DNA from: Phycisphaerales bacterium
GTDB lineage: Bacteria; Planctomycetota; Phycisphaerae; Phycisphaerales; UBA5793
Length of the DNA: 64,000 nt
Assembly: GCA_020852515.1 (NCBI GenBank)
Contig: JADZAS010000003.1
Span: 23,787 to 87,786, forward strand
Direction: 5' to 3'
The position numbers and the translations under genes were made by a program. Below the pieces are notes generated by a model. That model was not told the DNA's origin. It made no database searches and saw nothing but the letters and a program-made list of their open reading frames with translations. Below are positions 11,250-62,373 of the stretch, piece by piece. Within the stretch, counting starts at the first letter, position 1; each line of letters begins with the position of its first letter.

Positions 11250-11430
11250 CCGCGTCCACGCCGCCCGAGTGATGCCCATCGCACAGCCATAAGGGCCGTG
11301 CCATGTTCATCCTATTCACCTCGTCGGCGCGACCGCAGCGGCACGCGCCTCACCACACCGCAGTTCGATCACGCTTGCCCGGAAGTACCGTGCAAGGAAC
11401 GACATTCCCCCAGTCCTCTAAGGAGTACCC

Positions 11431-12240: not shown

Positions 12241-12260
12241 TGACGCGCGGAGGTGTCGAG

Positions 12261-13103
12261 ATGAGAGTTCGATCGCACTGCTCTGCCGCGCTGATCAGCC
12301 TGGTGCTGCTCATGCAGGCCGCGATGGGGTCCAGCGCGCTGTGCGCGCTGGACCTCGATCCGGCGCAAACGTCAGATCCGCCTGCAGGCAACGCCATGTG
12401 CCCCGTGATCACTGACGAGCCGATCGATCCGGAGATCTACTCTGAGTACCAGGGGCGCCGAGTGTACTTCTGTTGCCAGAAGTGCAAACGCCAGTTTGAT
12501 CGTGGTCCTGAGCCGTTCATGGTCAACCTCGCGGCGCTTGACGTCGACGTGAACCACGAGCCGCTGAGCGACTCCCCGGTCGGAAGTACCGAGCAACCGG
12601 AGCAGCACCTCCATGAGGAGGAGCATGCTGATGACTCGCATGACCTTGATCACGGCACCGGACTCTGGCCGACCCTGAAGTGGATCGGAAAGTTCCATCC
12701 CGCAACGGTTCACTTTCCGATCGGGTTGCTCCTCGCGGCGTTCATCGCCGAGTGCCTGTTCATCGCCACGCGCCGCCAGTGGTTTGATGAAGCGGGTCGC
12801 TTTTGTCTGTGGGGCGGCGCGATTGGGGCCGTGGTTGCCGCGCTACTTGGCTGGTTGTTCGGCGGCATTCAACTCGTAGACGAGGATTGGCTGCTCACCA
12901 CTCACCGCTGGGCCGGGAGCGGAACGGCGCTCGTCTCCGTCATCGTGCTGGCGCTGAGCGAACGGCTGAGGTGGCGCCATCCCGGTATGAGCAGGGGATG
13001 GCTCCGCATGTCGCTTGCCGCCGTAGCGCTGCTGGCCGCCGCCGCCGGGTACTTTGGTGGAGCGCTCGTCTATGGCCTCAATCACTATTCGTGGTCATCA
13101 TGA
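12261..13103 (+). CDS. YHS-like domain plus DUF2231-type membrane protein
   Basis: A 280-residue protein. After a signal peptide (VRSHCSAALISLVLLMQAA) there is one YHS/TRASH-like module (NAMCPVITDEPIDPE...RRVYFCCQKCKRQF), then a His/Glu/Asp-rich linker (HLHEEEHADDSHDLDHG), then a C-terminal membrane domain of about four helices beginning KWIGKFHPATVHFPIGLLLA, the DUF2231 signature. The ATG at 12261 is chosen for its GGAGGTG site; an ATG at 12240 overlapping the previous stop is possible. It is a fusion of a soluble metal-binding module to a membrane domain, probably acting in copper handling at the inner membrane. Confidence 0.8.
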   Translation: MRVRSHCSAALISLVLLMQAAMGSSALCALDLDPAQTSDPPAGNAMCPVITDEPIDPEIYSEYQGRRVYFCCQKCKRQFDRGPEPFMVNLAALDVDVNHEPLSDSPVGSTEQPEQHLHEEEHADDSHDLDHGTGLWPTLKWIGKFHPATVHFPIGLLLAAFIAECLFIATRRQWFDEAGRFCLWGGAIGAVVAALLGWLFGGIQLVDEDWLLTTHRWAGSGTALVSVIVLALSERLRWRHPGMSRGWLRMSLAAVALLAAAAGYFGGALVYGLNHYSWSS

Positions 13104-15767: not shown

Positions 15768-17318
15768 ATGAGCACCAAGATAACCGCAGACGCAGGACAC
15801 ACGCAACGCACTTTGACGCGCCGCGACGTGCTCGCCACGAGCGCATTGGCGGGCAGCGCGATGCTCCTCGCCGGGCGAGCCGGCGCACAGCCGCCACAGC
15901 CCGACCCCAACCAATCGGAGCCGGCCCCACCCCAGCCCGACAAAGACTTCAAGTCCAAGGAGGACAACCCGGCGCGCGAAAACGTGCCGCCCGGCCACGA
16001 GCACTTTCCGCCCGGCGAACCAGGGAAGGACTACACGCCGGTCGTCGTCCCCAACGGCTGGACACTCCCGTACAAGGTGGTGGACGGCGTCAAGGTCTTT
16101 CACCTCGTCGCGGAGGAGGTCGAGCACGAGTTCGCGCCCGGGCTTAAGGCGACGTGCTGGGGGTACAACGGAGGCGTCCACGGGCCGGTGATCGAGGTGG
16201 TCGAGGGCGACCGTGTTCGCATCTTTGTCACCAACAAGCTCACCGCTCCCACCACGATCCACTGGCACGGCGTGCTCCTGCCCAGCGGCATGGACGGCGT
16301 CGGAGGACTCTCGCAGAAGGCGATCCTGCCGGGCGAAACGTTCATGTACGAGTTCACGCTCGTGCAGCATGGCACGCTCATGTACCACAGCCACCACGAT
16401 GAGATGACCCAGATGGGCCTGGGCCTGACCGGCATGTTTGTCATCCACCCGCGCAATCCCAAGGGCCCTCGCCCTGACCGGGACTTTGTCCTCTTACTGC
16501 ACGAGTGGAAGATCGACGTCGGCGCCAAGCGGCCCGACCCGAACGAAATGACCGACTTCAACATCCTGACCTTCAACGCCAAGGCGTTCCCGGGCACGCA
16601 ACCGCTGATCGCCAAGCGTGGGGACCGGATTCGCATTCGCATCGGCAATCTCAGCGCAATGAGCCACCATCCGATCCATCTGCATGGGTACTACTTCATG
16701 ATCACCGAGACTGATGGCGGCACGATCCCCGATGCCGGACAGTGGCCCGAGACCACGGTGCTCCTTCCCGTCGGAAGCACCCGCACCGTCGAGTTCACGG
16801 CTGACAACCCGGGCGACTGGGCCATGCACTGTCACATGACCCATCACCTCATGAACCAGATGGGAGAGGGGCTGCCAAACATGATCGGGGTCGATACCCG
16901 TGGCTTGGACAAGCAGGTTCGCAACCTCCTCCCCGACTACATGGCGATGGGACAGACGGGCATGGGTGACATGGGCACCATGGGCATGAAGGTTCCCGAC
17001 AACAGCATTCCGATGCTCGGCGCGATCGGTCCCAAGGACGAGATCACGATGGGCGGGATGTTCACGATCCTCAAGGTGCGAGAAACCCTCTCGAACTACG
17101 ACGAGGATCCCGGCTGGTACGCCGATCCGCCGGGCACGCTCGCTTCGCTCGCTGCGGCCGAAGCACTCCGACAGAACAGCGTGGCGAACGACGGGAGCAC
17201 TGCGCCCAGAGCGACTGCCGAGGCGATGCGGTCGTGGCCACAGGCAGATCCTGGACGGCTGCACACGCCGTCCGAGAGTCACCGCAATCATGGCAGTCAC
17301 GATGGAGGTGGGCGATGA
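15768..17318 (+). CDS. Tat-exported multicopper oxidase
   Basis: A 516-residue periplasmic multicopper oxidase, probably oxidising Cu(I) to the less toxic Cu(II). The N-terminus is a twin-arginine signal (LTRRDVLATSALAGSAMLLA). All four copper-ligand motifs are present: H165-W-H167-G, H207-S-H209-H, H301-P-I-H304-L-H306 and H354-C-H356-xxx-H360. The region 375-415 is Met-rich (MAMGQTGMGDMGTMGMKVP), as in copper-resistance oxidases that take Cu(I) from Met clusters. A Pro-rich linker of about 60 residues follows the signal. Its stop overlaps the start of the HMA protein gene. Confidence 0.93.
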   Translation: MSTKITADAGHTQRTLTRRDVLATSALAGSAMLLAGRAGAQPPQPDPNQSEPAPPQPDKDFKSKEDNPARENVPPGHEHFPPGEPGKDYTPVVVPNGWTLPYKVVDGVKVFHLVAEEVEHEFAPGLKATCWGYNGGVHGPVIEVVEGDRVRIFVTNKLTAPTTIHWHGVLLPSGMDGVGGLSQKAILPGETFMYEFTLVQHGTLMYHSHHDEMTQMGLGLTGMFVIHPRNPKGPRPDRDFVLLLHEWKIDVGAKRPDPNEMTDFNILTFNAKAFPGTQPLIAKRGDRIRIRIGNLSAMSHHPIHLHGYYFMITETDGGTIPDAGQWPETTVLLPVGSTRTVEFTADNPGDWAMHCHMTHHLMNQMGEGLPNMIGVDTRGLDKQVRNLLPDYMAMGQTGMGDMGTMGMKVPDNSIPMLGAIGPKDEITMGGMFTILKVRETLSNYDEDPGWYADPPGTLASLAAAEALRQNSVANDGSTAPRATAEAMRSWPQADPGRLHTPSESHRNHGSHDGGGR

Positions 17319-17787: not shown

Positions 17788-19287
17788 ATGGACGACGCAG
17801 CGACCCTTCGAGTCAGGCCTTCGACCGTCATTCGGTCGGCGGGGCACGCGCCGAAGCACCCGCCCCTCCGCAGGATCGCGGAGTGGTTCGGGCGGCGGAC
17901 GCTGCGGACACAACTGCTCCTCGTGGTCAACCTGATTGTCGGCACGGGGTTGATCACGTTTCTCTGCCTCGATTACCGACAGGGCGTGCGCTCCGCCATT
18001 CATGCCAAGATTGCCTCGCTTTCGGATGAGGCGAGGGCGATTGCCGTAGCGATTGAACCGCTTGAGCAGGTTGGCCCAGGCGCAGTTCAGCGTCACATCG
18101 ATGCCGTTTGCACCGCGATGGACCAAACAGAATCTCCCGGCCACTCGATCGAGGTGCGTCTCGGAGATCGTTTGCTGCTATCTCATCCGTCTTTGCATGG
18201 AGAATCCCACGATCCCGACGTTGCGGAAGGCGAGTCAAGAGTGGTCGGTCAGGCGTCCTTGAACGACGTGCAAGTGGCTGTTTCGGAGCGGACATCGGGG
18301 GCCGTTCGCAGGACGCAACGTGAGGCGGTGCTTCGAGCATCGATCATTGCCGCATCGGCCCTCGTCGGCGCCGGACTGATTAATCTGTTGCTCCTTCGTT
18401 TGGTCAACGCGCCGATTCGCGATCTGACGACATTCGTGCGCGGAGTTGGTCGCGGCGAATTCGGATTGTCCTTGAATACGGGCGGGAGCGCCGAACTGAC
18501 CTACCTGGCAAACGAAGTCTCCGCCATGAGCCGCGAACTCGCCCGGCGCGAGAGAGACCGTCAGCGTCAACTCAGCCGCGCTCGACAACTTCAAAATCAC
18601 CTCATGTCGGGCAAGAACGCCAATTGTCACCGTTGGTCCGCCACGGCATTCCAGCCGGCCGACGAAGTTGCGGGCGACTTTGCCGAGATCATGGATCTCG
18701 ACGACGGCTCGGTGCTGATTTGCCTGGCGGATGTCTCCGGTCACGGCATTGCCGCCGCGATGGGCGCCGCCATGGTCAAGGCGCTACTGCTCTCACTCGA
18801 CCTGTCAAGGCGGACGCCGGCGGACCTGCTGAACCAGATGAATGCCCGCTATCTCGACGCGAGTCTTCCCGATGACTTTGTCTCCATGATTGTCGTTCGC
18901 ATCAGCGCGGCGAGGGATGCCGCCACCTATGCGAGCGCGGGTCACGAGACCTGCTACATTCGCCGACACGTTGGCCAGGTGATGGAACTGCGATCGACGG
19001 GAACTCTGTTGGGCATGTGTGACGATGCGGATTGTCAGGATGCCACGGTGCCCATGATGGCCGGCGACACCATCGTTCTGGTCTCCGATGGGGTGTCGGA
19101 AGCGATGAATGAGAACGGCGACCTTTACGGCCGGCCCAGGCTTGTCGAACTGATTGCCGCCTCTTCCTCGCACACGCCAGAACAATTGGTCACGCAGATC
19201 TGTGATGATGTGGAGCGCCACCGTCGATCTGCCCGCCGCGCAGATGATATGACCATCGTAGCGTTCACGATCGATTCTCAGAATTGA
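17788..19287 (+). CDS. Membrane-bound SpoIIE/RsbU-type PP2C phosphatase with HAMP domain
   Basis: A 499-residue regulator. Layout: a TM helix near residues 48-65 (LLLVVNLIVGTGLITFLCL), a periplasmic sensor segment of about 120 residues, a second TM near 185-210, a HAMP linker (RLVNAPIRDLTTFVRGVGRGEFG), a short coiled coil, and a C-terminal SpoIIE phosphatase domain. Its metal-binding acids are visible in EVAGDFAEIMDLDDG, LADVSGHGIAAAMG, LVSDGVSEAMNENGD and ARRADDMTIVAF. Such enzymes dephosphorylate anti-anti-sigma factors in partner-switching systems. No anti-sigma or STAS gene is next to it. It probably senses a periplasmic metal or envelope signal for the cluster. Confidence 0.88.
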   Translation: MDDAATLRVRPSTVIRSAGHAPKHPPLRRIAEWFGRRTLRTQLLLVVNLIVGTGLITFLCLDYRQGVRSAIHAKIASLSDEARAIAVAIEPLEQVGPGAVQRHIDAVCTAMDQTESPGHSIEVRLGDRLLLSHPSLHGESHDPDVAEGESRVVGQASLNDVQVAVSERTSGAVRRTQREAVLRASIIAASALVGAGLINLLLLRLVNAPIRDLTTFVRGVGRGEFGLSLNTGGSAELTYLANEVSAMSRELARRERDRQRQLSRARQLQNHLMSGKNANCHRWSATAFQPADEVAGDFAEIMDLDDGSVLICLADVSGHGIAAAMGAAMVKALLLSLDLSRRTPADLLNQMNARYLDASLPDDFVSMIVVRISAARDAATYASAGHETCYIRRHVGQVMELRSTGTLLGMCDDADCQDATVPMMAGDTIVLVSDGVSEAMNENGDLYGRPRLVELIAASSSHTPEQLVTQICDDVERHRRSARRADDMTIVAFTIDSQN

Positions 19288-19506: not shown

Positions 19507-19771
19507 CGTCAGGCGGGCAGGTTTCGCCCTGGGATCCGCGTGCGGCCTGTTCTACATCGGCTGCGTCTTTGTGATGCTCACATCGCCCCACGATGCCGTG
19601 GTCCGGTTCTTCAATAGCATCCTGCACGGCTGGAATGTCGAGCCCATCATGCGCTGGGACATGCCATGGTGGGAGGCGGCGATCGGCGTGGTCGAGATCA
19701 CTATTCTCGGCTGGCTCTTCGGCGCGATGGTGGCGGCGCTCTACAACATCAGTGTGCGACTGTGGAGATGA
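19493..19771 (+). CDS. DUF5676-like small membrane protein
   Basis: A 92-residue membrane protein with two helices (about residues 10-30, AGFALGSACGLFYIGCVFVM, and 66-86, AAIGVVEITILGWLFGAMVAAL) joined by a loop with Trp-rich HGWNVEPIMRWDMPWWE. The pattern matches the DUF5676 family often found next to copper-transport genes. The ATG at 19493 is chosen for its AAGGAGG site. The stop overlaps the start of the P-type ATPase gene (ATGA), so the two are coupled. Confidence 0.75.
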   Translation: MKAIDVRRAGFALGSACGLFYIGCVFVMLTSPHDAVVRFFNSILHGWNVEPIMRWDMPWWEAAIGVVEITILGWLFGAMVAALYNISVRLWR

Positions 19772-21879
19772 ACATGCACGAGCACGGTCGACACCAACCA
19801 GCCCGCAACGAGGATCAAGAGCGCTCGGAACGCCAGGGTGCCGCACACACTTCGCCTGCACGCCAGGAGGAGCACACCCATCCTGAGGCTGAGGGCGAGA
19901 GCGGGCACGATCACCGCAGCCACCACGCGCACATGGTGGCCGACTTCCGCCGGCGGTTCTGGATCTCCCTGGTCCTCACGGTCCCGGTCGTCGCCCTGGC
20001 CCCCATGATTCAGCGCTGGTTGGGGCTGGCGGAGATTCTGCGCTTCTCCGGCGATGCGTACCTCCAGTTCGCTCTGGGCTCGATTGTCTACTTCTATGGC
20101 GGCTGGCCGTTCCTTAAGGGTCTGTTCGTCGAGTTGCGCCATCGAATGCCCGGCATGATGACGCTGATTGCCCTGGCCATCTCGGTCGCGTACTTCTACT
20201 CGAGTGCCGTGGTGTTCGGGCTGAAAGGCGAGGTGTTCTTCTGGGAACTGGCAACGCTTATCGACATTATGCTGCTCGGTCACTGGATCGAGATGCGTTC
20301 AGTCATGGGCGCCTCGGCGGCGCTGGAGACGCTTGTCCGCCTGATGCCCTCTGAAGCGCACCTCGTGATGGAGGATGGCAACACGCGCGACGTAAAGGTC
20401 ATTAGTCTCGCGCATGGAGACAGAACGCTCATCAAGCCCGGCGAGAAGATTCCCACGGACGGCGTAGTCGTCGAGGGTCGCTCGACTGTCAACGAGTCCA
20501 TGCTGACCGGCGAGAGCACGCCGGTCGAGAAGGGTGAGGGCGATCAGGTCATCGGCGGAGCCATCAACGGCGAAGCCTCGCTCATCGTCGAAGTGCAAAA
20601 AACCGGCGATCAGACGTACCTCTCGCAGGTCGTCGAGATGGTCCGCCAGGCGCAGGAGTCCAAGTCCCGGACGCAGGACCTTGCAAACCGAGCCGCGTTG
20701 TGGCTGACGATCATCGCGATTTCCGTCGGTGCCGTCACGATGGTGACTTGGACGCTACTGGGCAAGCCCTTTGACTTTGCGCTGGAGAGGACTGTGACGG
20801 TCATGGTCATCGCATGTCCGCACGCGCTGGGGCTGGCCGTACCTCTCGTGGTGTCGGTATCCACGGCCATCGCGGCCCGCAACGGGCTGCTCATTCGCGA
20901 CCGAAGCGCATTTGAACGGGCGCGTGACCTCAATGCCATCGTCTTTGACAAGACAGGCACACTCACCGAGGGACGCTTCGGCGTAACGGACGTCATTTCG
21001 GTCGGGCGCCGATCGACGGATGAACTGCTCACCCTTGCTGCGGGCCTCGAAAGTCAGTCCGAGCACCCGATCGGCGAAGGTGTCGTGCGGGGCGCGGAAG
21101 AGCGCGGCCTGAAGTACAGCGCACCTCAGGAGTTCAAGGCCATCGCCGGCAAAGGCGCAGAGGCGCTGGTTGACGGGACACGACTCAAGATCGTCAGTCC
21201 AGGCTACCTGAGGGAAAACAACCTCACTGTCAAAGATGATCGCATCGTCAAGGTCGCCGAGGAGGGCAAGACCGTCGTTTATTTGGTCATCGATGACAGC
21301 GTCGAGGGGGCCATCGCGCTAGCAGACATCATCCGGCCTGAGTCGCGCGAAGCCCTGAGTCGACTCAAGGAGATGGGAATCCAGGTCATGATGCTGACCG
21401 GCGATGCAAAGGCGGTCGCGAAGTGGGTATCAGGTGAACTTGGATTAGACGAGTATTTCGCCGAGGTTCTGCCGGATCAGAAGGCGTCAAAGATCAAAGA
21501 AATCCAATCGCGCGGCCTGGTGGTCGCAATGACCGGCGATGGGGTCAACGATGCGCCCGCGCTCACCCAGGCGGATGTCGGCATCGCGGTGGGTGCGGGA
21601 ACAGATGTGGCCATCGAGTCGGCCGACATCGTGCTCGTTCGCTCTGACCCGCGTGATGTAACCGCCGTCGTCGAACTCGCACGAGCGACCTATCGCAAGA
21701 TGGTCCAGAACCTCTGGTGGGCGACGGGCTACAACGCGTTTGCAATCCCGCTTGCCGCAGGCGTGCTCAGCGGAATGGGCATTGTGCTCTCCCCGGCTGT
21801 CGGAGCGGCACTGATGTCACTGTCGACCGTGGTTGTGGCTATCAATGCCCGTTTCCTTCGCGTGGAACGCTTGGATTGA
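19768..21879 (+). CDS. copB: Copper P1B-type ATPase, CPH (CopB-like) class
   Basis: A 703-residue metal-exporting ATPase. Instead of CxxC domains the first ~55 residues are His-rich (MHEHGRHQ, HTHPEAEGESGHDHRSHHAH). The ion-channel motif is C350-P-H, followed by ALGLAVPLVVS, which marks the P1B-3 (CopB-like) class for copper or silver export. Other marks: actuator TGES (MLTGESTPVEKG), phosphorylation site D394-KTGTLTEG, nucleotide-binding HP (SEHPIGEG) and hinge GDGVNDAPAL, then TM helices with NLWWATGYNAFAIPLAAG. Start 19768 overlaps the previous stop; an ATG at 19774 with better GGAG spacing is equally possible. It would pump copper from cytoplasm to periplasm, where the oxidase acts. Confidence 0.92.
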   Translation: MNMHEHGRHQPARNEDQERSERQGAAHTSPARQEEHTHPEAEGESGHDHRSHHAHMVADFRRRFWISLVLTVPVVALAPMIQRWLGLAEILRFSGDAYLQFALGSIVYFYGGWPFLKGLFVELRHRMPGMMTLIALAISVAYFYSSAVVFGLKGEVFFWELATLIDIMLLGHWIEMRSVMGASAALETLVRLMPSEAHLVMEDGNTRDVKVISLAHGDRTLIKPGEKIPTDGVVVEGRSTVNESMLTGESTPVEKGEGDQVIGGAINGEASLIVEVQKTGDQTYLSQVVEMVRQAQESKSRTQDLANRAALWLTIIAISVGAVTMVTWTLLGKPFDFALERTVTVMVIACPHALGLAVPLVVSVSTAIAARNGLLIRDRSAFERARDLNAIVFDKTGTLTEGRFGVTDVISVGRRSTDELLTLAAGLESQSEHPIGEGVVRGAEERGLKYSAPQEFKAIAGKGAEALVDGTRLKIVSPGYLRENNLTVKDDRIVKVAEEGKTVVYLVIDDSVEGAIALADIIRPESREALSRLKEMGIQVMMLTGDAKAVAKWVSGELGLDEYFAEVLPDQKASKIKEIQSRGLVVAMTGDGVNDAPALTQADVGIAVGAGTDVAIESADIVLVRSDPRDVTAVVELARATYRKMVQNLWWATGYNAFAIPLAAGVLSGMGIVLSPAVGAALMSLSTVVVAINARFLRVERLD

Positions 21880-21933: not shown

Positions 21934-22266
21934 ATGGATACCGCAGTTACATTCGTTCGAGCATCCCAGCGCATGAACGGTCATTGCCCCTCCGGGAGCA
22001 CCGTATCGTCACGTGGAAAGCGCGAGGCAGTGCGCCAATTGGCGCGTCTATCTCGTTGCGTTCAGTTCGCACGCTCCCGCGCATCGCGACCCCTTCCACG
22101 TTGGGGATCTCAGGCGTATCTCCGCAGTCACTGGGATGGACTCCAGGCTTTGGAGTTCAGGGGTTCCGGTTTCGGATTCCTGATCATGTGTGAAAGGGCC
22201 GCGCGCGCAAAAACCACTCGCGCGCATGAAGCAATTCTCCATTCTACGAAAGGAACATTATCATGA
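21934..22266 (+). CDS. Possible small Arg-rich protein of unknown function
   Basis: A 110-residue frame with no recognised family and high Arg and Ser content. In its favour: an AGAAAGGAG site 5 bases before the ATG, and an ATGA overlap with the next gene. Against it: composition like unconstrained GC-rich DNA, and an inverted repeat GCGCGCG (22201-22207) / CGCGCGC (22219-22225) within its 3' part that looks like an intergenic hairpin. It could be a decayed gene or simply a leader between two transcription units. If it is not coding, 21880-22262 is a 380-base intergenic gap. Confidence 0.3.
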   Translation: MDTAVTFVRASQRMNGHCPSGSTVSSRGKREAVRQLARLSRCVQFARSRASRPLPRWGSQAYLRSHWDGLQALEFRGSGFGFLIMCERAARAKTTRAHEAILHSTKGTLS

Positions 22267-23261
22267 CACGTACACGGACTTCAAGAATTCTCGCCATCGT
22301 GGCCTCGTTGCTGGCCTCCACAGGGAGAATCTCGGGCACGCTGGCGCAATCGACGCCTTCGGCCGACGCCACACATTCGCAGCATGCTCAGCACGCTGAC
22401 GCTGCGAAACCGGATGCGCCTCTGGTCGAGCCTTCCATGAAGGATTTGATTGATCAGCTCGCTGCACTGCGTGGCGAGATTGCCAAATTGCAGGCCGCAC
22501 TGTCGCAGGGCCATGCTTCGTCGCAGGGGATGTCGCCGCCTCCCGCTCAAAATGAGATGCAGCGTCGTATGGGCAAGGGTCCGATGGGAGAGGCGCCGGC
22601 GCTGGCGACGGCTGGCGGTGTCGGCGGGATGTCAGGCAAATCCGGGCCGCCGGGGATGGCCGGCGGTGGCATGGGCAGGTCGGATATGGACATGAAGACG
22701 ATGGGCAGTGGGACGTCCGGCGGCGCCTCTGGAGTGGGAGGCAGGATGGACCAGATGATGAAGATGATGGGCATGGGTGAGATGCCTATGGGCGGCGCTG
22801 GCAGTCCTGCGATCATGAACATGCCCTCGGCACTCCCCGGCTTCCCTGGCGCATCGCATATCTACCACATTGGCGCCACCGGCTTCTTCCTCGATCACAC
22901 GGAGCATATCACACTGACGCTTGAGCAGCGGACTGCGCTTAACCAGCAGAAGGAGCAGACTCTGCTCCGTCAGGCCGAGTTGCAGCGGATGATCGAGCAG
23001 GCCGAGCAGGAACTTTGGCTGCTGACCGCCGCCGATCAGCCCGATGCCGTGGCGATTGAGCAGAAGGTGCAGGAGGTCGCGCGGAAGCAGGGCGAACAGC
23101 GGCTGGCGTTCATCCGTGCGGTGGGCGAGGCTGCGCGCCTGCTCACCGATGAACAGCGCCAGCAACTCACCGGGATGCTTCCGCCAGCGCCAACATCTTC
23201 GGTCCCGACCTCTCCGCGAGCGCCGGCCGCGACCCAGGGCGGCGGTATGGACGACATGTGA
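22263..23261 (+). CDS. Exported Met-rich Spy/CpxP-like protein
   Basis: A 332-residue periplasmic protein. After a signal peptide and a His-rich patch (HSQHAQHADAAK) comes a long Met/Gly-rich low-complexity region (residues 90-185; GMGRSDMDMKTMGSG, MMKMMGMGEMPMGGAG), typical of Cu(I)-binding segments. The C-terminal part is helical with LTLEQRTALNQQKEQTLLRQ and a later QRLAFIRAVGEAARLLTDEQ, the LTxxQ repeats of Spy/CpxP-type periplasmic chaperones. An AAAGGAA site precedes the ATG. It opens the second block of the copper region and probably buffers metal or protects proteins in the periplasm. Confidence 0.72.
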   Translation: MTRTRTSRILAIVASLLASTGRISGTLAQSTPSADATHSQHAQHADAAKPDAPLVEPSMKDLIDQLAALRGEIAKLQAALSQGHASSQGMSPPPAQNEMQRRMGKGPMGEAPALATAGGVGGMSGKSGPPGMAGGGMGRSDMDMKTMGSGTSGGASGVGGRMDQMMKMMGMGEMPMGGAGSPAIMNMPSALPGFPGASHIYHIGATGFFLDHTEHITLTLEQRTALNQQKEQTLLRQAELQRMIEQAEQELWLLTAADQPDAVAIEQKVQEVARKQGEQRLAFIRAVGEAARLLTDEQRQQLTGMLPPAPTSSVPTSPRAPAATQGGGMDDM

Positions 23262-23299
23262 ACCAAACCCAGTGCACTTCGAAAGACGGGAGACTCCCC

Positions 23300-23599
23300 A
23301 TGACCAAGACTGTTCAATCAACCAAGATTCGGTCCCACACCTTCACCGTGGCCGCCCCTCGATCGAGGGAGGTTCTCATCGCCGGCTCGTTCAACGCCTG
23401 GAAGGGCCAGCCCATGAAGCGAAGTCGATCCGGTGAGTGGTCTGCGAGCATTGATCTGAAGCCGGGCCGCCACGAATTCAAGTTCATCATCGATGGCGAG
23501 TGGTGTTGTGAGTTCGGTTGCGATGGGCCGCACGAAGGCTGCCCCAAGTGCGTGCGCAACTCGTTTGGCACGATGAACCGCGTGCTCGAGATCCACTGA
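23300..23599 (+). CDS. Stand-alone CBM48/AMPK-type glycogen-binding-like domain
   Basis: A 99-residue soluble protein. It contains the immunoglobulin-like fold of CBM48/AMPK-beta glycogen-binding domains: FTVAAPRSREVLIAGSFNAW, then SIDLKPGRHEFKFIIDGEW. The C-terminal part adds four Cys (CCEFGC, CPKC) not usual in that family, which could bind metal. The ATG at 23300 has a GGGAGA site; an ATG at 23258 overlapping the previous stop would add 14 residues. Such isolated domains are common in planctomycetes with unknown partners. Its place among metal genes and its extra Cys make a carbohydrate role uncertain. Confidence 0.7.
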   Translation: MTKTVQSTKIRSHTFTVAAPRSREVLIAGSFNAWKGQPMKRSRSGEWSASIDLKPGRHEFKFIIDGEWCCEFGCDGPHEGCPKCVRNSFGTMNRVLEIH

Positions 23600-23610: not shown

Positions 23611-24015
23611 GTGGACGAACAACGGCGGTTCCAACTTCGTCGCGTCATCCTCTGGACGGCGGCCATCGCTTTGCTGCACTTTCTGGTGGGCACACGGACG
23701 CACGCCCTGCATGGACTGCACATCCTGCTCGCCGGATTGTTTTTCATGCCCATCCTGGTCGGCGCGGTTACGTTCGGAACGCGCGGAGGTGTCCTGGCAG
23801 CACTGGCGGCTGGCGTGCTTTACCTCGCTCACCTCCTGTGGTCCTGGCGAGGGTCGGGACTCGGTAACGCGGACCAGTACGCCATGATCGGCGTGTACTT
23901 CATCGTCGGGATCGTCGCGGGCCGCCTAGTGAGTGTCGCCAACTTCCGCAAGTGGCAGCGCGACGAAGTCGTTCGGCGTGCGTATCGGGAGTCGTTGGGA
24001 GCCAAGGACAAATGA
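23611..24015 (+). CDS. Four-helix membrane protein (histidine-kinase-like sensor segment)
   Basis: A 134-residue membrane protein with about four helices and a short basic C-terminus (NFRKWQRDEVVRRAYRESLG). The first helices (VILWTAAIALLHFLVGT, GLHILLAGLFFMPILVGAVTF) and the short loop with RGGVLAALAAGVLYLAH resemble the membrane sensor part of some histidine kinases, but no kinase domain follows. The start is a GTG with a GAGGA site 8 bases upstream. It overlaps the reductase gene start by ATGA, so the two are co-translated, and it may help assemble the electron-transfer complex. Confidence 0.65.
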   Translation: MDEQRRFQLRRVILWTAAIALLHFLVGTRTHALHGLHILLAGLFFMPILVGAVTFGTRGGVLAALAAGVLYLAHLLWSWRGSGLGNADQYAMIGVYFIVGIVAGRLVSVANFRKWQRDEVVRRAYRESLGAKDK

Positions 24016-25751
24016 TTCGACCGCACTTCTCATCGACGCTTGCGACGGTGATCGCCCTCACGTTCACGATCCTGCTGGGCGCTCAGGTCACTCAGGACGA
24101 GCACGCCAGCCATCATCCAGGTCAGGACAGCCCCACCGAGGTTGGCGTTCCGTCCGGTGGGGCGGGGGGGATGGAAGGCATGGCCGAGATGATGCAGGGG
24201 ATGGGTGCTCCCCCGCCCAAGGAGCTCTACCCGACGCTCATGGAGCTTTCGGGCCTGCCGCCGGAGAAGCGGGCGGAAGTGAAAGCGGCAGCCCACGACC
24301 GCATGAAGAGTGGCACCGTGTTGATGGCCGAGGGACTTGATCGACTAGTGCGTGCTGCTCCGACGGACGATTACCAAGCGATGCAAGAGGCGGTCGCGCT
24401 GCTGCGCGAAGGGATGGCGCGATTCGACAGTGGCCTCGCCGCGCACCGCGCGCTCTCCGAGAATCAGGACGGACGAACCATCGCCATGAACTGGTTCAGG
24501 TCGCAGATGAACCTGCCCGGATCACCGGCGCCCGCGGAACAATGGTCCCTCCTCGGCCTCTCGGCGGCGCACCTCGCACTCATGGTGATTCTCATCGGCT
24601 TTGCGCTGGCAATGATCGCCATGTACTTCTTGAAGATGCGCCGCGCCTCGACGCTGCTGCGGCGTCTCACCGAGGCGCCGCGCGGTCCGTGGGGCGGCTC
24701 CCTCCGCGTGGCACGGATCTTCGCCGAAACGCCATCCATCAAGACCTTCCGCCTGCTCGAACCCGTCGGCGGCCCAATCCCGTTTACCTTCCTCCCCGGA
24801 CAATTCCTGACCCTCACGGTCGCCCGAGACGGCAGGACCGTCAAGCGTTCGTACACGATCGCATCGTCGCCAGCGCAGCGCGATTACATCGAGATTACCG
24901 TGAAGCGTGAGGAACAGGGATTCGTCTCACGGTATCTCTGCGATGAAGTCCGCGAGGGGACGCTTCTCCAAGTGTCTGCGCCGCAGGGCTATTTAACGTT
25001 CACCGGCAAGGAAGCCGAGAGCATCGTGCTGATCGGCGCCGGCGTGGGGATCACGCCCCTGATGAGCGTGATTCGTTACCTCACCGATCGGGCGTGGCCC
25101 AAGGACATTTACCTGCTCTTCTCATGTCGTACGCCCGATCAGTTTGCCTTCGGCGCCGAACTTGAACACTTGCACCGCCGCCACGCGAACCTTCATGTCG
25201 TTGCCACAGTGACTGGGGCTGACGGAACTGAGTGGACCGGCTTGCGCGGCCGATTCACCAAAGAATTGATCTCACAGTCAGTACCGGACATTGCCAGCCG
25301 GCGCGTTCACCTTTGCGGCCCTGCGCCGATGATGGACGTCACGCGTGCGATGCTGCTCGAACTCGGGGTGGCTGCAGCGAGCATCATGTCCGAGGGCTTC
25401 GGTCCGCCACCGGGTCAAAGGCCGCACGAGCGCCAGATCGCGTTTGAGGCCGCCGTGGCGCAAGCGGATCCGGATGCCCCAGAAGTGCCAAGCGTGCTCT
25501 TCACAATCTCCGGCAAGACCGCGCAACTACCAGCAGACATGAGCGTCTTGGAAGCCGCCGAGCACGTCGGAGTTTCGATCGACTACTCCTGCCGCGTCGG
25601 CACCTGCGGGGCCTGCAAGGTCAAACTCCGCAAGGGCGCGGTCACAATGGCCGTCGAGGAAGGTCTGCCGCCCGCGGACAAAACCCGCGGCATCATCCTC
25701 GCATGTCAAGCCAAGGCGTTCGGTGGCGAAAGCTTGGAGGTGGAAGCCTGA
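24012..25751 (+). CDS. Membrane-anchored FAD/NAD(P)H and 2Fe-2S oxidoreductase
   Basis: A 579-residue electron-transfer protein. Order: signal/anchor helix (about 8-25), a periplasmic helical Met/His-rich segment of about 150 residues (DEHASHHPGQ, GGMEGMAEMMQGMGAPP), a TM helix (about 187-212), then a cytoplasmic ferredoxin-NADP reductase domain with FAD motif R279-SYTIASS and nucleotide motif GAGVGITPLMSVIRYL, and finally a plant-type 2Fe-2S domain with C527, C532, C535 and C565. It would draw electrons from NAD(P)H on the cytoplasmic side. It is coupled to the gene before it and followed by a cytochrome b and a multiheme cytochrome c, the likely electron acceptors. The fused periplasmic Met-rich domain is unusual. 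Confidence 0.88.
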   Translation: MIRPHFSSTLATVIALTFTILLGAQVTQDEHASHHPGQDSPTEVGVPSGGAGGMEGMAEMMQGMGAPPPKELYPTLMELSGLPPEKRAEVKAAAHDRMKSGTVLMAEGLDRLVRAAPTDDYQAMQEAVALLREGMARFDSGLAAHRALSENQDGRTIAMNWFRSQMNLPGSPAPAEQWSLLGLSAAHLALMVILIGFALAMIAMYFLKMRRASTLLRRLTEAPRGPWGGSLRVARIFAETPSIKTFRLLEPVGGPIPFTFLPGQFLTLTVARDGRTVKRSYTIASSPAQRDYIEITVKREEQGFVSRYLCDEVREGTLLQVSAPQGYLTFTGKEAESIVLIGAGVGITPLMSVIRYLTDRAWPKDIYLLFSCRTPDQFAFGAELEHLHRRHANLHVVATVTGADGTEWTGLRGRFTKELISQSVPDIASRRVHLCGPAPMMDVTRAMLLELGVAAASIMSEGFGPPPGQRPHERQIAFEAAVAQADPDAPEVPSVLFTISGKTAQLPADMSVLEAAEHVGVSIDYSCRVGTCGACKVKLRKGAVTMAVEEGLPPADKTRGIILACQAKAFGGESLEVEA

Positions 25752-25753
25752 AC

Positions 25754-26527
25754 ATGCAGGAGCGTGAGCGCGTCATCGTGAGTTGTCTGGTCGTCCTGCT
25801 GCTGGTGCTGGCGGCGGGTTTCGTGTTCCATCGCGATGAGCGATTCGCCGGAAGCCTGGCGGGCGGCATCCTCGGCATCTCGGCCGCGGCCTTGATGTTC
25901 GTGCCGCTGCTGTACCTGTTCATCAAGCGGATTCCGTTCCTGAAGCGAAGGATCGTGTCGCACGTCTCGATGCGTACGCTGCTGGCGATCCACATCTACG
26001 CGGGGATCGTCGGGCCGATCCTGGCCATCCTTCACAGCAGCCACAAGTTCAACAGCACGGTGGGGATCGCGCTGACGCTGATGATGCTCATCGTTGTCGT
26101 GAGCGGCTTCGTCGGCCGGTACCTCATGGGCCGCGTTTTGACTGACATCCGCGAGAAGCAAGTCACGCTCACAGCCCTCCAGAAACAGTATGACGCTCTG
26201 GCATCTGATCTCGTCGTGAATCCTGAGGCTGTCGTGCGCATCCGCCGAAGGTCGAGCGTCTTCGGACGCCTCGCGGCTCCGTTCTTTGTTTCATCGAGGG
26301 GCGGCGGACTATCCGGGGAGTCGCTCGACCCGGTCGCGAAGGCCGTGTCGCTGTCGGAGTCCATCGCCGACATGGAGTACGCGATCCGCACGCAGCAAGC
26401 AGCCAAGGACGCGTTCGGCAAGTGGCTCGCGTGCCACATCGTCATCGCGATAATCCTCTACACGCTTCTGGTGCTGCACATCTGGTCCGAGTGGTATTTC
26501 GGAATCCGGTGGCTCGTCCCGCAATGA
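25754..26527 (+). CDS. Diheme cytochrome b of ferric-reductase type
   Basis: A 257-residue membrane protein with five hydrophobic helices. Two helices each carry a pair of His spaced H-X13-H: H80 to H94 (HIYAGIVGPILAILH, followed by H97) and H228 to H242 (HIVIAIILYTLLVLH). That is the two-heme ligand pattern of ferric reductase/NOX-type membrane domains. About 100 polar residues between helix 4 and helix 5 (REKQVTLTALQKQYDALASD...) form a cytoplasmic domain. It starts two bases after the reductase stop and its stop overlaps the multiheme cytochrome start. Likely role: carry electrons across the membrane from the reductase to the periplasmic cytochrome. Confidence 0.82.
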   Translation: MQERERVIVSCLVVLLLVLAAGFVFHRDERFAGSLAGGILGISAAALMFVPLLYLFIKRIPFLKRRIVSHVSMRTLLAIHIYAGIVGPILAILHSSHKFNSTVGIALTLMMLIVVVSGFVGRYLMGRVLTDIREKQVTLTALQKQYDALASDLVVNPEAVVRIRRRSSVFGRLAAPFFVSSRGGGLSGESLDPVAKAVSLSESIADMEYAIRTQQAAKDAFGKWLACHIVIAIILYTLLVLHIWSEWYFGIRWLVPQ

Positions 26528-27294
26528 CACCGCTGCCGCTCATCTATGGTGTTGTAACGATCGGCGCTCTTGCCGCTGCGATCGGCATCCCCGCAGTCAT
26601 GCACAAGCGAGGATCGACGGCCGTTTCGACATGGCAAGCGATGGTGAGTCCCGGCGATCTCTCTGCCAAGCACGCGTTTCTTGAAACGAACTGTGAAGCG
26701 TGTCACACCCCTCACCGTGGAGTAACCGCTGACAGGTGCATCGTCTGCCATGCGAGCAACGAGCTGTTGTTATCCCAGCAGACGACTGCCTTTCACGCGA
26801 ATGTTACGGATTGTCGCGGATGTCACATCGAACATGGCGGAGCGGCGCACCGGCCGGTATTGATGGATCACATGGTGCTGGCGCGCATCGGCATGAGCCG
26901 CTCGAAGTTCAACCTTGCTTTTGGAGGAGTGAAGGTGTCGTCGCTCCCAGCTGGCCACCCGCGCATTCGGCCGGAGGAAACACTACTCGATTGCGCTGCG
27001 TGCCACTCAAACCAGGATCCTCACCGCATGTTGTTTGGAACAGATTGCGCCTCCTGCCACGGCACGAGCACGACGACGGCGTGGACGATCCCAGAGTTCC
27101 GCCATCCATCAGCGCTCTCGACCGACTGCGCCCAGTGCCACCAAGCGCCGCCAAGCCATTACATGATGCACTTCCAGATGGTCTCAATGACAGTCGCTGG
27201 TATTGCGCACGCGGACGTATCGCAGTGCTTTCTCTGTCACCAGATCAATTCGTGGAACGACATCAAGGGAGTCGGTTGGTACAAGCACCACTAG
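26524..27294 (+). CDS. Heptaheme c-type cytochrome, membrane-anchored
   Basis: A 256-residue protein with an N-terminal membrane anchor (LPLIYGVVTIGALAAAIGIPAV) and seven CxxCH heme sites: CEACH, CIVCH, CRGCH, CAACH, CASCH, CAQCH and CFLCH. The other His residues can act as distal ligands. It resembles the multiheme cytochromes of the NapC/NrfB or doubled-CxxCH kind. Its start overlaps the cytochrome b stop (ATGA). It would take electrons in the periplasm and pass them to a terminal acceptor not encoded here, perhaps a metal ion or the membrane-bound protein of the next gene. Confidence 0.9.
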   Translation: MTPLPLIYGVVTIGALAAAIGIPAVMHKRGSTAVSTWQAMVSPGDLSAKHAFLETNCEACHTPHRGVTADRCIVCHASNELLLSQQTTAFHANVTDCRGCHIEHGGAAHRPVLMDHMVLARIGMSRSKFNLAFGGVKVSSLPAGHPRIRPEETLLDCAACHSNQDPHRMLFGTDCASCHGTSTTTAWTIPEFRHPSALSTDCAQCHQAPPSHYMMHFQMVSMTVAGIAHADVSQCFLCHQINSWNDIKGVGWYKHH

Positions 27295-27319
27295 AGAAAC
27301 ACGATACCGGTGAATCCAC

Positions 27320-28151
27320 ATGAATGAATCCGTTCGCACACTTGTCATCGCTGTTGGCGTAGCATGGGCGGCGCTGTTTCTGTTGGCGTTGGCGCTGACG
27401 TATTTACCGCGCGCCGTATCGAAGGGTGGCGCCGGGATCTGGTGGGGCGCACGCGCGCCCTGGCTTGATGTCATCGTGGCGGCGCTGACATGGATTCCGT
27501 GGATCATCGCTGGAATTGCCGGCGGCTGGGCCGCCGTGGCTGGGACCATGCTTGGACAAGTCGTCGCGCTCTACTCATGGATTGCACTGCACGAACTCGT
27601 GCATCGTCGCGGTCGTGGGAGCGCAAGACTGGTGGGCTACATCAGTCGACATTACGGCCGTTGGCGGAACCATGCGGCGTTGATCGTCACGTTGATCGGG
27701 CTGCCAGTTCTCTGGCCGATTCGCCTGACCGAGATCATCGCATACCCTGCGTTGATCTGGCTGCTGGGATTTCCGCGTTACCGCCACGGCGATTGGGTGA
27801 ACATCAGTCGTCAGAAGTTCGACGGCTTGATTGGCCATGATCTGATCTGGTGCCTGTACTGCGACTGGATGACCGGCGTATATGCCCTGGGCGGCGAAAT
27901 GCTCCGCAATGTCGAATCGTTCTGGTGCCCGATACGCTTCTACGACGGCAAGAAGTGCGAGAAATTGCCACATCGACTTTCCCGATCTCGATCACGGCTG
28001 GGTGGCTGCGGATGGCTCAATGCAGGACGTCGAGGCGCTCATGCGGCAGAAGTATCCGCGAGGGCAGCAACCTGCCTGGTTTGGACACTCAGTTCGGTTG
28101 ACCGTGAATGAAGGATCGAACGGGCCAGGCTTGCAACGAGGTGATGCATGA
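27320..28151 (+). pseudogene. Membrane protein with C-terminal zinc-ribbon-like tail, frameshifted
   Basis: The first 213 residues encode a protein with three or four helices (VIAVGVAWAALFLLALALTY, WLDVIVAALTWIPWIIAGIA, ALIVTLIGLPVLWPI) and a conserved-looking end CLYCDWMTGVYALGGEMLRN. At the AAA run 27962-27964 the frame breaks. Read as written, translation ends at 28111 with a basic nonsense tail; dropping one A continues ...KKCENCHIDFPDLDHGWVAA to a stop at 28151. That continuation restores a CxxC motif and overlaps the next start codon by ATGA like its neighbours, so it is the original frame. The break is either a real inactivating mutation or a sequencing error in a homopolymer. Function unknown; it is tied to the heme genes by position. 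Confidence 0.65.
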
Positions 28152-35476: not shown

Positions 35477-36277
35477 TCAGATCCCCAATGCCGTGAAGTC
35501 GCCGCTCTCGTAGACACGCTCGACGTAGGCCGCGACCGGGCGCTTCACAATCGCGCCGGCGCCGGCGTCCTCCGCCTCGGCGTAGCGCACCCAAAGGTAC
35601 TCCCAGCCCTTCTTGTCGATGCCGGTAATGTCGCCGATGCTCAGGCCGGTTCGATTAGGGCGCGAGGCGAAGCGGAAGGTCAGTTCCCAGTCGCCCTGGC
35701 CGCGTTTGGAGCCGCTCACGCCGAGGAAGAGGCACTCGCCCGCGTTGAAGCCCTTGAATGGGGCGTCGTTTACACGGCCGGTGAGGGCGAAGAGCGTACC
35801 TTTATATGTGGGCGTCACCAGACTGTCGTCGAGGTAGTGCGTCTCGGTGAACTGGTAGACGGGCACGACGATGTCCACGCCCTCGACGCTGTCGGCCGTG
35901 ACGCCGATGGCGCCTTTGAAGTCCGGCGCGGTCTTGCCGGGCGGGGCGTGGGAACTGATCGTCGCGTGGGACTGGGTGATGTGCTCATTGCCGCCGCCGG
36001 TCTCGAACGTAAAGGTGCTCTCGCCAGTGTCGGGTGGGTCGGTCGAGGAATCGACCTGGTAGGTGACGGTGCCGTCGTAGAGATCGGGCCCGGCCTCCTC
36101 GACGCGCACCTGATAGAGCGGCAGGCCGCCGTGGAACGACGGAGCCTCGGCTTCGAGCGCGGTAAGGGCTTCGAGATCATCGCTCGTGCCGCGCACCCAG
36201 TACAGGCGCTCGGTGGATGGGCTCCGGCCGCTGGTGGAGGTTCTGCTGATCCCGCGTTCCTGAACTTCCGTGCTCAT
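35477..36277 (-). CDS. Prophage tail-region protein after the tape measure
   Basis: A 266-residue soluble protein, beta-rich and acidic, with no family I recognise. Its place directly downstream of the tape measure gene (4-base ATGA overlap) is where distal tail or baseplate proteins are normally encoded in long-tailed phages. Readable features include YWVRGTSDDLEALTALEAEA near the N-terminus and GDITGIDKKGWEYLWVRYAE near the C-terminus. Function as a distal tail-like protein is inference. Confidence 0.75.
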   Translation of the reverse strand: MSTEVQERGISRTSTSGRSPSTERLYWVRGTSDDLEALTALEAEAPSFHGGLPLYQVRVEEAGPDLYDGTVTYQVDSSTDPPDTGESTFTFETGGGNEHITQSHATISSHAPPGKTAPDFKGAIGVTADSVEGVDIVVPVYQFTETHYLDDSLVTPTYKGTLFALTGRVNDAPFKGFNAGECLFLGVSGSKRGQGDWELTFRFASRPNRTGLSIGDITGIDKKGWEYLWVRYAEAEDAGAGAIVKRPVAAYVERVYESGDFTALGI

Positions 36278-49855: not shown

Positions 49856-50041
49856 TCACCCCCCCACCCGCTCCGTCGTCGTCACGCGCCGCCCGCAGTG
49901 TCGGCATTCCCGCCTTCTCCGAATGGCCCCGCCGAGGATTTGTCGGGTGTAGATCACCTCGAAGTGGCCGCAGCCGCACTTCGGGCACAGAATCCCGCGC
50001 GGCTCGGGCTCGCGTTTCGACCTGGTCGTGGTTTCGCTCAT
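49856..50041 (-). CDS. Small zinc-ribbon protein in the late operon
   Basis: A 61-residue protein with two CxxC pairs, CPKCGCGHFEVIYTRQILGG and RECRHCGRRVTTTERVGG, the NrdR-type zinc-ribbon pattern. It starts at an ATG overlapping the terminase stop (ATGA), and ends 22 bases before the convergent mercury fusion gene. Small zinc ribbons like this are frequent in phages, often as transcription or packaging accessories. The mercury cassette lies directly downstream, so it marks the left side of the insertion point. Confidence 0.75.
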   Translation of the reverse strand: MSETTTRSKREPEPRGILCPKCGCGHFEVIYTRQILGGAIRRRRECRHCGRRVTTTERVGG

Positions 50042-52338: not shown

Positions 52339-52582
52339 GGCCGCCTCCGTTCGCGCCGGCGCGCTCGGCCATGTCGCGCACGAGCCAGGCGGCGTAGTGC
52401 ACAAGGTTGATCGTGCCGTCGCCGTTCGTCGGCGCGCCCTCGTCGATGTCGCGCTCGATCATCGCCTCGGTGATCGGCCGGCCGCCGACGCGCGTCAACG
52501 TGCGCGCCGTGTCGGTCACCGATAGAGCGGCCGGGTTGAGGCCGCCGGGTCGATCAGGCTGGTCATCACGCGGCGTCAGCAC
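52328..52582 (-). CDS. Small terminase-like DNA-binding protein
   Basis: An 84-residue protein starting at a GTG with a GGAGGG site. The body is helical: TARTLTRVGGRPITEAMIERDIDEGAPTNGDGTINLVHYAAWLV, a helix-turn-helix-like unit followed by the motif YAAWLVRDM. The same kind of unit, ending YTAWLV, begins the large terminase. In gene order it takes the place of the small terminase. It overlaps the large subunit start by 11 bases. A DNA-recognition role for packaging is inferred from these facts. Confidence 0.65.
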   Translation of the reverse strand: MLTPRDDQPDRPGGLNPAALSVTDTARTLTRVGGRPITEAMIERDIDEGAPTNGDGTINLVHYAAWLVRDMAERAGANGGGRGD

Positions 52583-62371: not shown

Positions 62372-62373
62372 TG

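What the first reader, a model, noticed from the sequence alone, without database searches (positions are those of the whole stretch)
24012..28151. Transmembrane electron-export chain built into a copper-resistance region
Four consecutive genes, mostly overlapping by ATGA or separated by a few bases, encode a membrane-anchored FAD/NAD(P)H/2Fe-2S reductase with a fused Met/His-rich periplasmic domain, a cytochrome b with two H-X13-H helices (the ferric reductase/NOX heme pattern), a heptaheme cytochrome c and a membrane protein with a CxxC tail. Together they form a plausible route for electrons from cytoplasmic NAD(P)H to a periplasmic multiheme protein. Set in a cluster with a multicopper oxidase and copper ATPase, the acceptor could be a metal ion or a periplasmic redox partner. 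I know of no described system with this gene set.
Basis: partly seen in the sequence, partly recalled or inferred. Interest (0 to 1): 0.78.

Follow-up and report, generated by a model that had tools for sequence, protein, structure and literature searches.

The report
Mobile copper-linked transmembrane electron wire
Three adjacent genes, found in the same order in three bacterial phyla and often on plasmids beside copper-resistance genes, are predicted to form a membrane wire that would carry electrons from NAD(P)H inside the cell to a seven-haem protein outside the membrane, likely to set the redox state of copper there; the papers searched do not describe it.

Summary
The core holds: a membrane-anchored FAD/NAD(P)H/2Fe-2S reductase with a Met/His-rich periplasmic domain (RED), a predicted five-helix protein with two H-X13-H helices (CYB) and a protein with seven CXXCH motifs (CYC) are tightly coupled genes. 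The fourth gene does not belong: its strong relatives occur in genomes without CYB, and its frame is broken. RED-CYB-CYC is a unit in Planctomycetota, Pseudomonadota and Bacteroidota, rare (10 of 392 and 7 of 398 genomes) and often on plasmids: 52 records hold CYB, all 52 hold CYC, 49 adjacent at the best place. It has crossed phyla. A copper marker lies nearby in 21 of 36 loci against 2 of 20 control stretches; a Met-rich periplasmic protein is often upstream. Exceptions suggest a general conduit: in Alteromonas it precedes a hydrogenase operon, in Legionella it lies beside an N-type ATPase. Best reading: a modular NAD(P)H-to-periplasm electron wire that likely reduces copper or a copper protein. 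Acceptor and direction are untested. CYB has no Pfam family and no confident solved fold. New variant of a known kind (transmembrane b-haem metalloreductases), not described in the results of ten literature searches.

The parts
15768..17318 (+). multicopper oxidase (context)
   Evidence: Pfam Cu-oxidase, Cu-oxidase_2 and Cu-oxidase_3 above cut-off
19768..21879 (+). P1B-type metal ATPase with a CPH motif and His-rich N-terminus (context)
   Evidence: Pfam E1-E2_ATPase, Hydrolase; CPH and His-rich stretch read in the translation
22263..23261 (+). Met-rich Metal_resist/Spy-like protein, likely periplasmic; recurrent upstream partner
   Evidence: Metal_resist E 2.3e-5, below the Pfam cut-off; relatives in 8 of 10 planctomycete neighbourhoods (own included), 2 of 7 Pseudomonadota genomes, 5 of 14 plasmid loci, 0 of 5 Legionella, 0 of 20 controls
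23294..23599 (+). stand-alone CBM48/AMPK glycogen-binding domain protein (context)
   Evidence: Pfam AMPK1_CBM E 3e-14; elsewhere this domain type is fused to the RED periplasmic domain
23611..24015 (+). small membrane protein, DUF4118-like (context)
   Evidence: DUF4118 E 0.0043, below cut-off; stop overlaps the RED start
24012..25751 (+). RED: N-terminal export/anchor helix, Met/His-rich helical domain predicted periplasmic (about residues 24-184), TM helix within 185-220, FAD/NAD(P)H and 2Fe-2S domains (224-579) predicted cytoplasmic
   Evidence: Pfam; AlphaFold2 mean pLDDT 82.3; best Foldseek PDB match 2pia phthalate dioxygenase reductase E 1.8e-24; conserved in 74 aligned sequences
25754..26527 (+). 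CYB: predicted di-haem b membrane protein, five predicted TM helices, two H-X13-H helices, long helical hairpin predicted cytoplasmic
   Evidence: six invariant His in 84 sequences; AlphaFold2 mean pLDDT 83.8, pTM 0.70; no Pfam match at E <= 1, no NCBIfam match at E <= 0.1
26524..27294 (+). CYC: predicted membrane-anchored heptahaem c-type cytochrome (seven CXXCH)
   Evidence: Pfam cytochrome c3/c7 families above cut-off; all seven motifs invariant in 16 sequences
27320..28151 (+). fourth gene of the finding: membrane protein split over two frames (27320-28111 and 27882-28151); not part of the conserved unit
   Evidence: homologues L100 and L101 match both frames in one ORF, L102 the first only; found in 5 of 294 planctomycete genomes, own included

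Best explanation
RED, CYB and CYC are three tightly linked genes that are predicted to form one transmembrane electron wire, which would take electrons from NAD(P)H in the cytoplasm through FAD, a 2Fe-2S cluster and two b-haems to a seven-haem protein in the periplasm, where the likely acceptor is copper or a copper protein. Shown by sequence: the domains, the conserved His and CXXCH residues, the coupling, the conserved order. Inferred: RED's flavin/FeS head docks on the cytoplasmic helical hairpin of CYB; haem 1 is held by H80/H228 and haem 2 by H94/H242; CYC collects electrons on the outer face; the Met/His-rich domain of RED and the Met-rich protein upstream hold copper next to CYC. Most likely net reaction: Cu(II) to Cu(I) in the periplasm, supplying Cu(I)-selective export and storage proteins, above all when oxygen is low; electron delivery to another periplasmic redox partner in other loci.
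For: Anatomy. CYB His invariant in 84 of 84 rows; CYC motifs in 16 of 16. Unit conserved: 31 of 31 loci that I compiled have a match to all three (CYC of L022 partial, RED of L068 in two ORFs; left out: L024 degraded, L065 contig end, Legionella near-copies L006, L007, L009, and L097, a second cut of the L005 genome); 13 of 15 fetched genome stretches show all three side by side, the other two cut by a contig or stretch end; 52 of 52 plasmid records with CYB hold CYC, 49 adjacent at the best place. Distances of the three proteins covary, r 0.67-0.74, 0 of 2000 permutations as high (shared descent alone would also give this). Distant CYB relatives include single-chain fusions with 4Fe-4S and FAD pyridine-nucleotide oxidoreductase domains (L042, Pfam; L049 and L052 by sequence) or precede long multihaem cytochromes (L040, Pfam; L046 by sequence), which supports the electron path; CYB-to-relatives profile match probability 99.9, E 3.5e-33. 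Copper: a marker beside 21 of 36 loci versus 2 of 20 control stretches, Fisher p 5e-4; M..M motif in the RED N-terminus of 72 of 74 sequences and an EHxxHH-type motif in 64 of 74; Met-rich Spy-like gene upstream; MerR-family regulators a few genes or less upstream in L019, L020, L071. The own genome has cytochrome c assembly genes (3 PF01578 matches).
Against: No activity, haem or copper datum exists here. None of the copper markers was found in the scanned stretch of 15 of 36 loci (in L012, L013 and L015 copper genes are annotated just outside it). Alteromonas/Glaciecola carry the unit in front of a hydrogenase operon, so the acceptor or donor may differ and flow may reverse. In 5 of 5 further Legionella loci an N-type ATPase is the constant neighbour and only 1 has a copper marker; planctomycete L064 also has that ATPase. 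The window's own ATPase has a CPH motif, which I recall as the mark of P1B-3 pumps, and these are described as Cu2+ exporters (PMC5552934, abstract start), which would not need Cu(II) reduction. Copper resistance usually oxidises Cu(I) in the periplasm (recalled), the opposite direction. The MerR-family neighbours score similarly against MerR, ZntR and CueR models, none above cut-off, so the inducer metal is not settled. The control stretches are arbitrary places on the same contigs of 12 of the genomes and none comes from the plasmid records; the near-identical Legionella loci are not independent; the RND marker is not copper-specific.
Confidence: 0.5

Rival explanations
1. A redox valve: the same wire re-oxidises NAD(P)H by feeding the periplasmic multicopper oxidase (and so O2) or another cytochrome, a copper-stress bypass of the respiratory chain rather than a metal reductase.
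For: Multicopper oxidase genes near 2 of 10 planctomycete, 2 of 7 Pseudomonadota, 6 of 14 plasmid and 1 of 5 Legionella loci. Recurrent bioenergetic and carbon-storage neighbours: N-type ATPase, glutamate dehydrogenase, glycogen genes.
Against: No oxidase was found near 25 of 36 loci; the Met/His motifs on RED itself are unexplained by a pure valve.
Confidence: 0.2
2. Reverse flow: the unit takes electrons from a periplasmic donor (H2 through hydrogenase, or Cu(I)) to make NAD(P)H in the cytoplasm.
For: In Alteromonas and Glaciecola plasmids the unit is followed, after one gene of unknown function, by hydrogenase genes (maturation protease, HupH-like, small and large subunit, hyp genes); the small subunit starts with a twin-arginine signal, SRRTFLK, so the hydrogenase is likely periplasmic. 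I saw no b-type hydrogenase subunit annotated within the stretch shown.
Against: The hydrogenase marker was found in 2 of 14 opened plasmid loci and 0 of 22 other loci; Orf1 and Cyt, which I take to be CYB and CYC, were not needed for maximal HynSL activity in E. coli (PMC3102683, passages), though no role in electron disposal is reported in the passages read.
Confidence: 0.13
3. A ferric or broad metal reductase (the name 'iron reductase' on some RefSeq copies), copper neighbours being incidental.
For: RefSeq names some CYB copies 'iron reductase'; His spacing and weak fold similarity to SpNOX and human Dcytb; in L020 an annotated divalent metal cation transporter follows CYC.
Against: Copper-gene association above controls; apart from L020 I noticed no iron-uptake gene beside the unit in the regions opened, though I did not scan for them; Met-rich motifs fit Cu(I) better than Fe(III) (recalled).
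Confidence: 0.1
4. Repair wire: electrons go to a periplasmic methionine-sulfoxide or disulfide reductase that maintains Met-rich copper proteins, as in MsrPQ.
For: Flavin reductase plus membrane haem b is the MsrPQ logic (recalled); Met-rich partners.
Against: I noticed no MsrP-like gene in the regions opened (not scanned for); 11 PF01794 sequences, several of MsrQ look, show no profile similarity to CYB; a heptahaem acceptor is not part of MsrPQ (recalled).
Confidence: 0.05

Closest known systems
NOX / FRE / STEAP ferric-reductase superfamily
   Same: NAD(P)H to FAD to b-haems across the membrane, held by His pairs (recalled); eukaryotic Fre- and Steap-family members can also reduce Cu(II) (PMC7558416, passages).
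   Different: Flavin domain on a separate anchored protein with an added 2Fe-2S cluster; output through a heptahaem cytochrome; no PF01794 match; long helical hairpin; multi-subunit and plasmid-borne.
Dcytb (cytochrome b561 family)
   Different: Ascorbate donor, one chain, no NAD(P)H reductase and no c-haems (recalled).
CcoG cupric reductase
   Same: Membrane-bound bacterial Cu(II) reductase, called the first specific one (PMC7558416, passages).
   Different: Works through two iron-sulphur clusters, linked to cbb3 oxidase assembly, electron donor unknown (same passages); no haem, no NAD(P)H domain (recalled).
PepSY_TM metal reductases (FoxB, CrpH)
   Same: Haem-mediated reduction in the periplasm by a membrane protein with His pairs; CrpH is speculated to be a copper reductase (PMC13038864, passages).
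   Different: Electron donor of FoxB unknown (same passages); PepSY periplasmic domains; no linked heptahaem cytochrome that I know of (recalled).
MsrPQ
   Same: Flavin reductase feeding a membrane haem b protein for a periplasmic reductase (recalled).
   Different: Soluble flavin reductase, molybdoenzyme acceptor, MsrQ in PF01794 (recalled).
Inner-membrane multihaem conduits (CymA/NrfH, CbcL)
   Same: Electrons handed to periplasmic multihaem c (recalled).
   Different: Fed by quinol, not by NAD(P)H through a dedicated reductase (recalled).
orf1 and cyt of the Alteromonas macleodii hydrogenase cluster
   Same: Very likely CYB and CYC of this unit (gene order).
   Different: Named without a function; the reductase is not mentioned in the passages read (PMC3102683).

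Membership tests
Ferric reductase domain superfamily (PF01794, NOX/FRE/MsrQ) | Pfam PF01794 profile match | tested here: not met
   CYB has no Pfam family at E <= 1; only a distant fused relative (L042) shows E 0.0088, below cut-off
Ferric reductase domain superfamily (PF01794, NOX/FRE/MsrQ) | two helices each with a pair of His about 13 residues apart | tested here: met
   H80-X13-H94 and H228-X13-H242, invariant in 84 of 84 rows; the pattern is also visible in the distant relatives aligned
Ferric reductase domain superfamily (PF01794, NOX/FRE/MsrQ) | profile or fold homology to members | tested here: inconclusive
Ferric reductase domain superfamily (PF01794, NOX/FRE/MsrQ) | FAD/NAD(P)H domain on the same chain (NOX/FRE) | tested here: not met
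   separate gene RED
Phthalate-dioxygenase-reductase-type flavoproteins (FAD + NAD + plant-type 2Fe-2S) | three domains in this order | tested here: met
   Pfam FAD_binding_6, NAD_binding_1, Fer2; 2pia E 1.8e-24; Cys 527, 532, 535, 565 invariant in 74 rows
Phthalate-dioxygenase-reductase-type flavoproteins (FAD + NAD + plant-type 2Fe-2S) | soluble oxygenase partner | tested here: inconclusive
   no oxygenase recognised by eye among the neighbouring ORFs, not searched for; RED carries an export/anchor helix and a TM helix
Cytochrome c3/c7 multihaem family | multiple CXXCH and family profile match | tested here: met
   seven CXXCH; PF14537, PF02085, PF14522 above cut-off
Periplasmic copper reductase | Cu(II) reduction activity | not testable with these tools
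   needs biochemistry
Copper-resistance gene cluster member | located with copper genes more often than chance | tested here: met
   21 of 36 loci versus 2 of 20 controls, p 5e-4; not universal, controls not from plasmids

The most novel reading that the evidence does not exclude
A previously unrecognised, plasmid-mobile three-subunit enzyme uses cytoplasmic NAD(P)H to set the oxidation state of periplasmic copper: a reductase that carries its own Met-rich copper cradle outside the membrane, a new family of di-haem cytochrome b, and a heptahaem outlet that can be re-wired to other periplasmic redox enzymes such as hydrogenase.
Probability: 0.33. Interest if true: 0.85.

Novelty: new variant of a known kind. 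Interest (0 to 1): 0.68.

Why it matters
[quoted passage not shown] This unit gives a complete candidate path from NAD(P)H to the periplasm, conserved across three phyla and spread on plasmids, so the question becomes testable with one three-gene construct. It also names a membrane family without a Pfam model and would explain proteins now called 'hypothetical' or 'iron reductase'.

Tried and rejected
Four-gene unit: rejected; gene 4 was not found beside the unit in the other loci scanned. RNA families above cut-off or tRNA: none in the window. Homology of CYB to PF01794 or DUF4405 by profile-profile comparison: no signal, but the sets were small (11 and 2 sequences after my filter). Fold search of CYB: long helices give only common helical matches; SpNOX and Dcytb rank among unrelated rows. 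Solved-structure search by sequence: CYB nothing relevant; CYC only a tetrahaem protein, 2a3m, E 1.2e-4. Copper-specific regulator: MerR-type neighbours could not be assigned to one metal. Literature: ten searches; I saw no paper on the three-gene unit in the capped listings; passages of PMC3102683, PMC7558416 and PMC13038864 were read, all other papers only as listings and abstract starts. Of 52 plasmid records 14 were opened; of 120 listed CYB homologues (746 found) 54 went into alignment A4.
Full report
What is there. Three genes at 24012-27294 form a coupled set: RED (579 aa), CYB (257 aa), CYC (256 aa). RED has an N-terminal export/anchor helix, a Met/His-rich helical domain, a second membrane helix followed by basic residues, and then FAD, NAD(P) and plant-type 2Fe-2S domains (Pfam; AlphaFold2 mean pLDDT 82.3; best Foldseek match phthalate dioxygenase reductase 2pia, E 1.8e-24). 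CYB matches no Pfam model at E <= 1 and no NCBIfam model at E <= 0.1; its model (mean pLDDT 83.8, pTM 0.70) has five long helices taken as membrane helices and a long helical hairpin between helices 4 and 5, which I place in the cytoplasm by the positive-inside rule (inference). Two helices carry H-X13-H, the spacing that would let two haems sit at the two faces of the membrane. CYC has an N-terminal hydrophobic stretch and seven CXXCH motifs and matches cytochrome c3/c7 families.

The fourth gene. The ORF at 27320-28111 matches homologues only to about residue 215; in L100 and L101 what follows is found in the window in another frame, in the ORF that ends at 28151, while L102 matched the first frame only. 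Relatives occur in 5 of 294 planctomycete genomes, own included; three of the others are of the same order and gave no CYB match at E <= 1e-10. It was not found in the other 35 trio neighbourhoods scanned. It is a neighbour, not a part.

Conservation. CYB has 746 homologues at E <= 0.001 in the protein collection (120 listed). Full-length orthologues (E below 1e-90) occur in 10 of 392 planctomycete genomes, own included, with a clear gap to distant relatives (E above 1e-20); 7 of 398 Pseudomonadota genomes, the Legionella centre included, match at E <= 1e-25. In the plasmid collection 52 records hold CYB (26 conjugative by the collection's typing); all 52 hold CYC and in 49 the best places are adjacent; the three others have more than one place. 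One further record, Emticicia, has a weak CYC match only (24.6%). The RED N-terminal domain alone, less conserved, was found in 23 records. All of 31 loci that I compiled have a match to all three genes (CYC of L022 partial, RED of L068 in two ORFs); left out were L024 (degraded), L065 (contig end), the Legionella near-copies L006, L007 and L009, and L097, a second cut of the L005 genome. Pairwise distances of the three proteins correlate at 0.67-0.74, with 0 of 2000 permutations as high; shared descent would also give this. A tree of the joined proteins mixes phyla: a Variovorax plasmid copy pairs with planctomycete L068 (100/100), and the L. fallonii plasmid copy lies in a clade (100/100) with Rhizorhabdus, L073 and L075, apart from the other Legionella copies (19 of 28 inner branches well supported). 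The unit therefore seems to have moved between phyla as a block.

Context. I scanned neighbourhoods (mostly 16-21 kb; L065, L066 and L068 shorter at contig ends) for copper markers (multicopper oxidase, CopB, copper ATPase, RND pump, DUF305/CopM, four-helix copper protein, DUF411/CopG, CopC, CopD). At least one was found in 5 of 10 planctomycete, 5 of 7 Pseudomonadota-genome, 10 of 14 opened plasmid and 1 of 5 further Legionella loci: 21 of 36, against 2 of 20 arbitrary 20-kb stretches on the same contigs of 12 of the genomes (tally by hand, Fisher p 5e-4). Caveats: no control is a plasmid record, RND pumps are not copper-specific, and the Legionella loci are near-copies. A Metal_resist/Spy-like Met-rich protein lies nearby in 8 of 10 planctomycete, 2 of 7 Pseudomonadota and 5 of 14 plasmid loci and in 0 of 5 Legionella and 0 of 20 controls, often directly upstream of RED; Pontibacter and Spirosoma have a different small Met-rich gene there. 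In Sphingobium, Rhizorhabdus and L071 a MerR-family regulator lies upstream, with none to a few small genes between; its metal cannot be assigned from profiles. RED's N-terminus has an M..M-type motif in 72 of 74 sequences and an EHxxHH-type motif in 64 of 74.

Contexts that do not fit a copper-only role. In Alteromonas and Glaciecola plasmids the unit is followed, after one gene of unknown function, by a [NiFe]-hydrogenase gene set whose small subunit has a twin-arginine signal. An expression study of that cluster states that Orf1 and Cyt (by gene order CYB and CYC, my identification) were not necessary for maximal hydrogenase activity in E. coli (PMC3102683, passages). In Legionella an ATPase operon that I read as N-type lies beside the unit, also in planctomycete L064, and glutamate dehydrogenase or glycogen genes recur. 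These argue for a general NAD(P)H-to-periplasm conduit with interchangeable partners.

Electron path from distant relatives. Remote CYB homologues (hhalign probability 99.9, E 3.5e-33) keep the H-X13-H helices. Some are one chain with 4Fe-4S and FAD pyridine-nucleotide oxidoreductase domains (L042, Pfam; L049 and L052 by sequence), and others precede long multihaem cytochromes (L040, Pfam; L046 by sequence). Such fusions support flow between a cytoplasmic flavoprotein, the b-haems and multihaem c.

Comparison with the known. It would work like the FRE/STEAP reductases that also reduce copper in eukaryotes (PMC7558416, passages), but membership in that superfamily is not shown: no PF01794 match, no profile signal, only weak fold similarity. 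CcoG (same review) and the PepSY_TM proteins FoxB and CrpH (PMC13038864, passages) are the closest bacterial analogues; the donors of CcoG and FoxB are given as unknown. Ten literature searches listed no description of the unit; the listings were capped and the library lacks most subscription papers.

Verdict. A real, conserved and mobile three-gene electron-transfer module; the route to the periplasm is well supported by sequence, copper as end point is likely but untested, and direction may differ between loci.

Noticed in passing
window 33700-63974 (mostly minus strand): Long run of phage-like genes downstream of the copper cluster (a terminase-like ORF 50038-52404, a tape-measure-like ORF 36274-38247, a portal-like ORF 45735-47240, a primase-like ORF 59915-62425, all by look of the translation only): probably a prophage.
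   Followed up: no
P0160, P0161, P0229: The periplasmic domain and TM helix of RED occur fused to a CBM48/AMPK glycogen-binding domain instead of the flavin reductase, and without a second domain in proteins of about 320-340 aa; in the window a CBM48 gene lies two genes upstream of RED.
   Followed up: partly
L005-L010, L023: An ATPase operon read as N-type lies beside the RED-CYB-CYC unit in Legionella chromosomes (same strand, just upstream) and, on the opposite strand, on the L. fallonii plasmid.
   Followed up: partly
L042, L049, L052: Single-chain fusions of 4Fe-4S ferredoxin, FAD pyridine-nucleotide oxidoreductase (YpdA/TrxR-like in L042) and a CYB-like membrane domain in planctomycetes: a separate branch for which I know no description.
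   Followed up: partly
L014 (Bradyrhizobium plasmid pBBta01): Three CYB copies on one plasmid record; beside the one at 11926-12669 the annotated RED is a short piece (11288-11923) next to an IS3 element.
   Followed up: no
L011, L019 and other Sphingobium-type records: A DUF1622 small membrane-protein gene directly follows CYC (and the annotations under many matches); found near 3 of 7 Pseudomonadota and 6 of 14 plasmid loci. Possible accessory subunit.
   Followed up: no
L062, L063, L005, L010: A glutamate/leucine-type dehydrogenase gene lies near the unit in planctomycetes and Legionella alike (Pfam for L062).
   Followed up: no
window 17788-19287: RsbU-like phosphatase (by look) between the multicopper oxidase and the metal ATPase; relatives in 3 of 10 planctomycete neighbourhoods, own included.
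   Followed up: no
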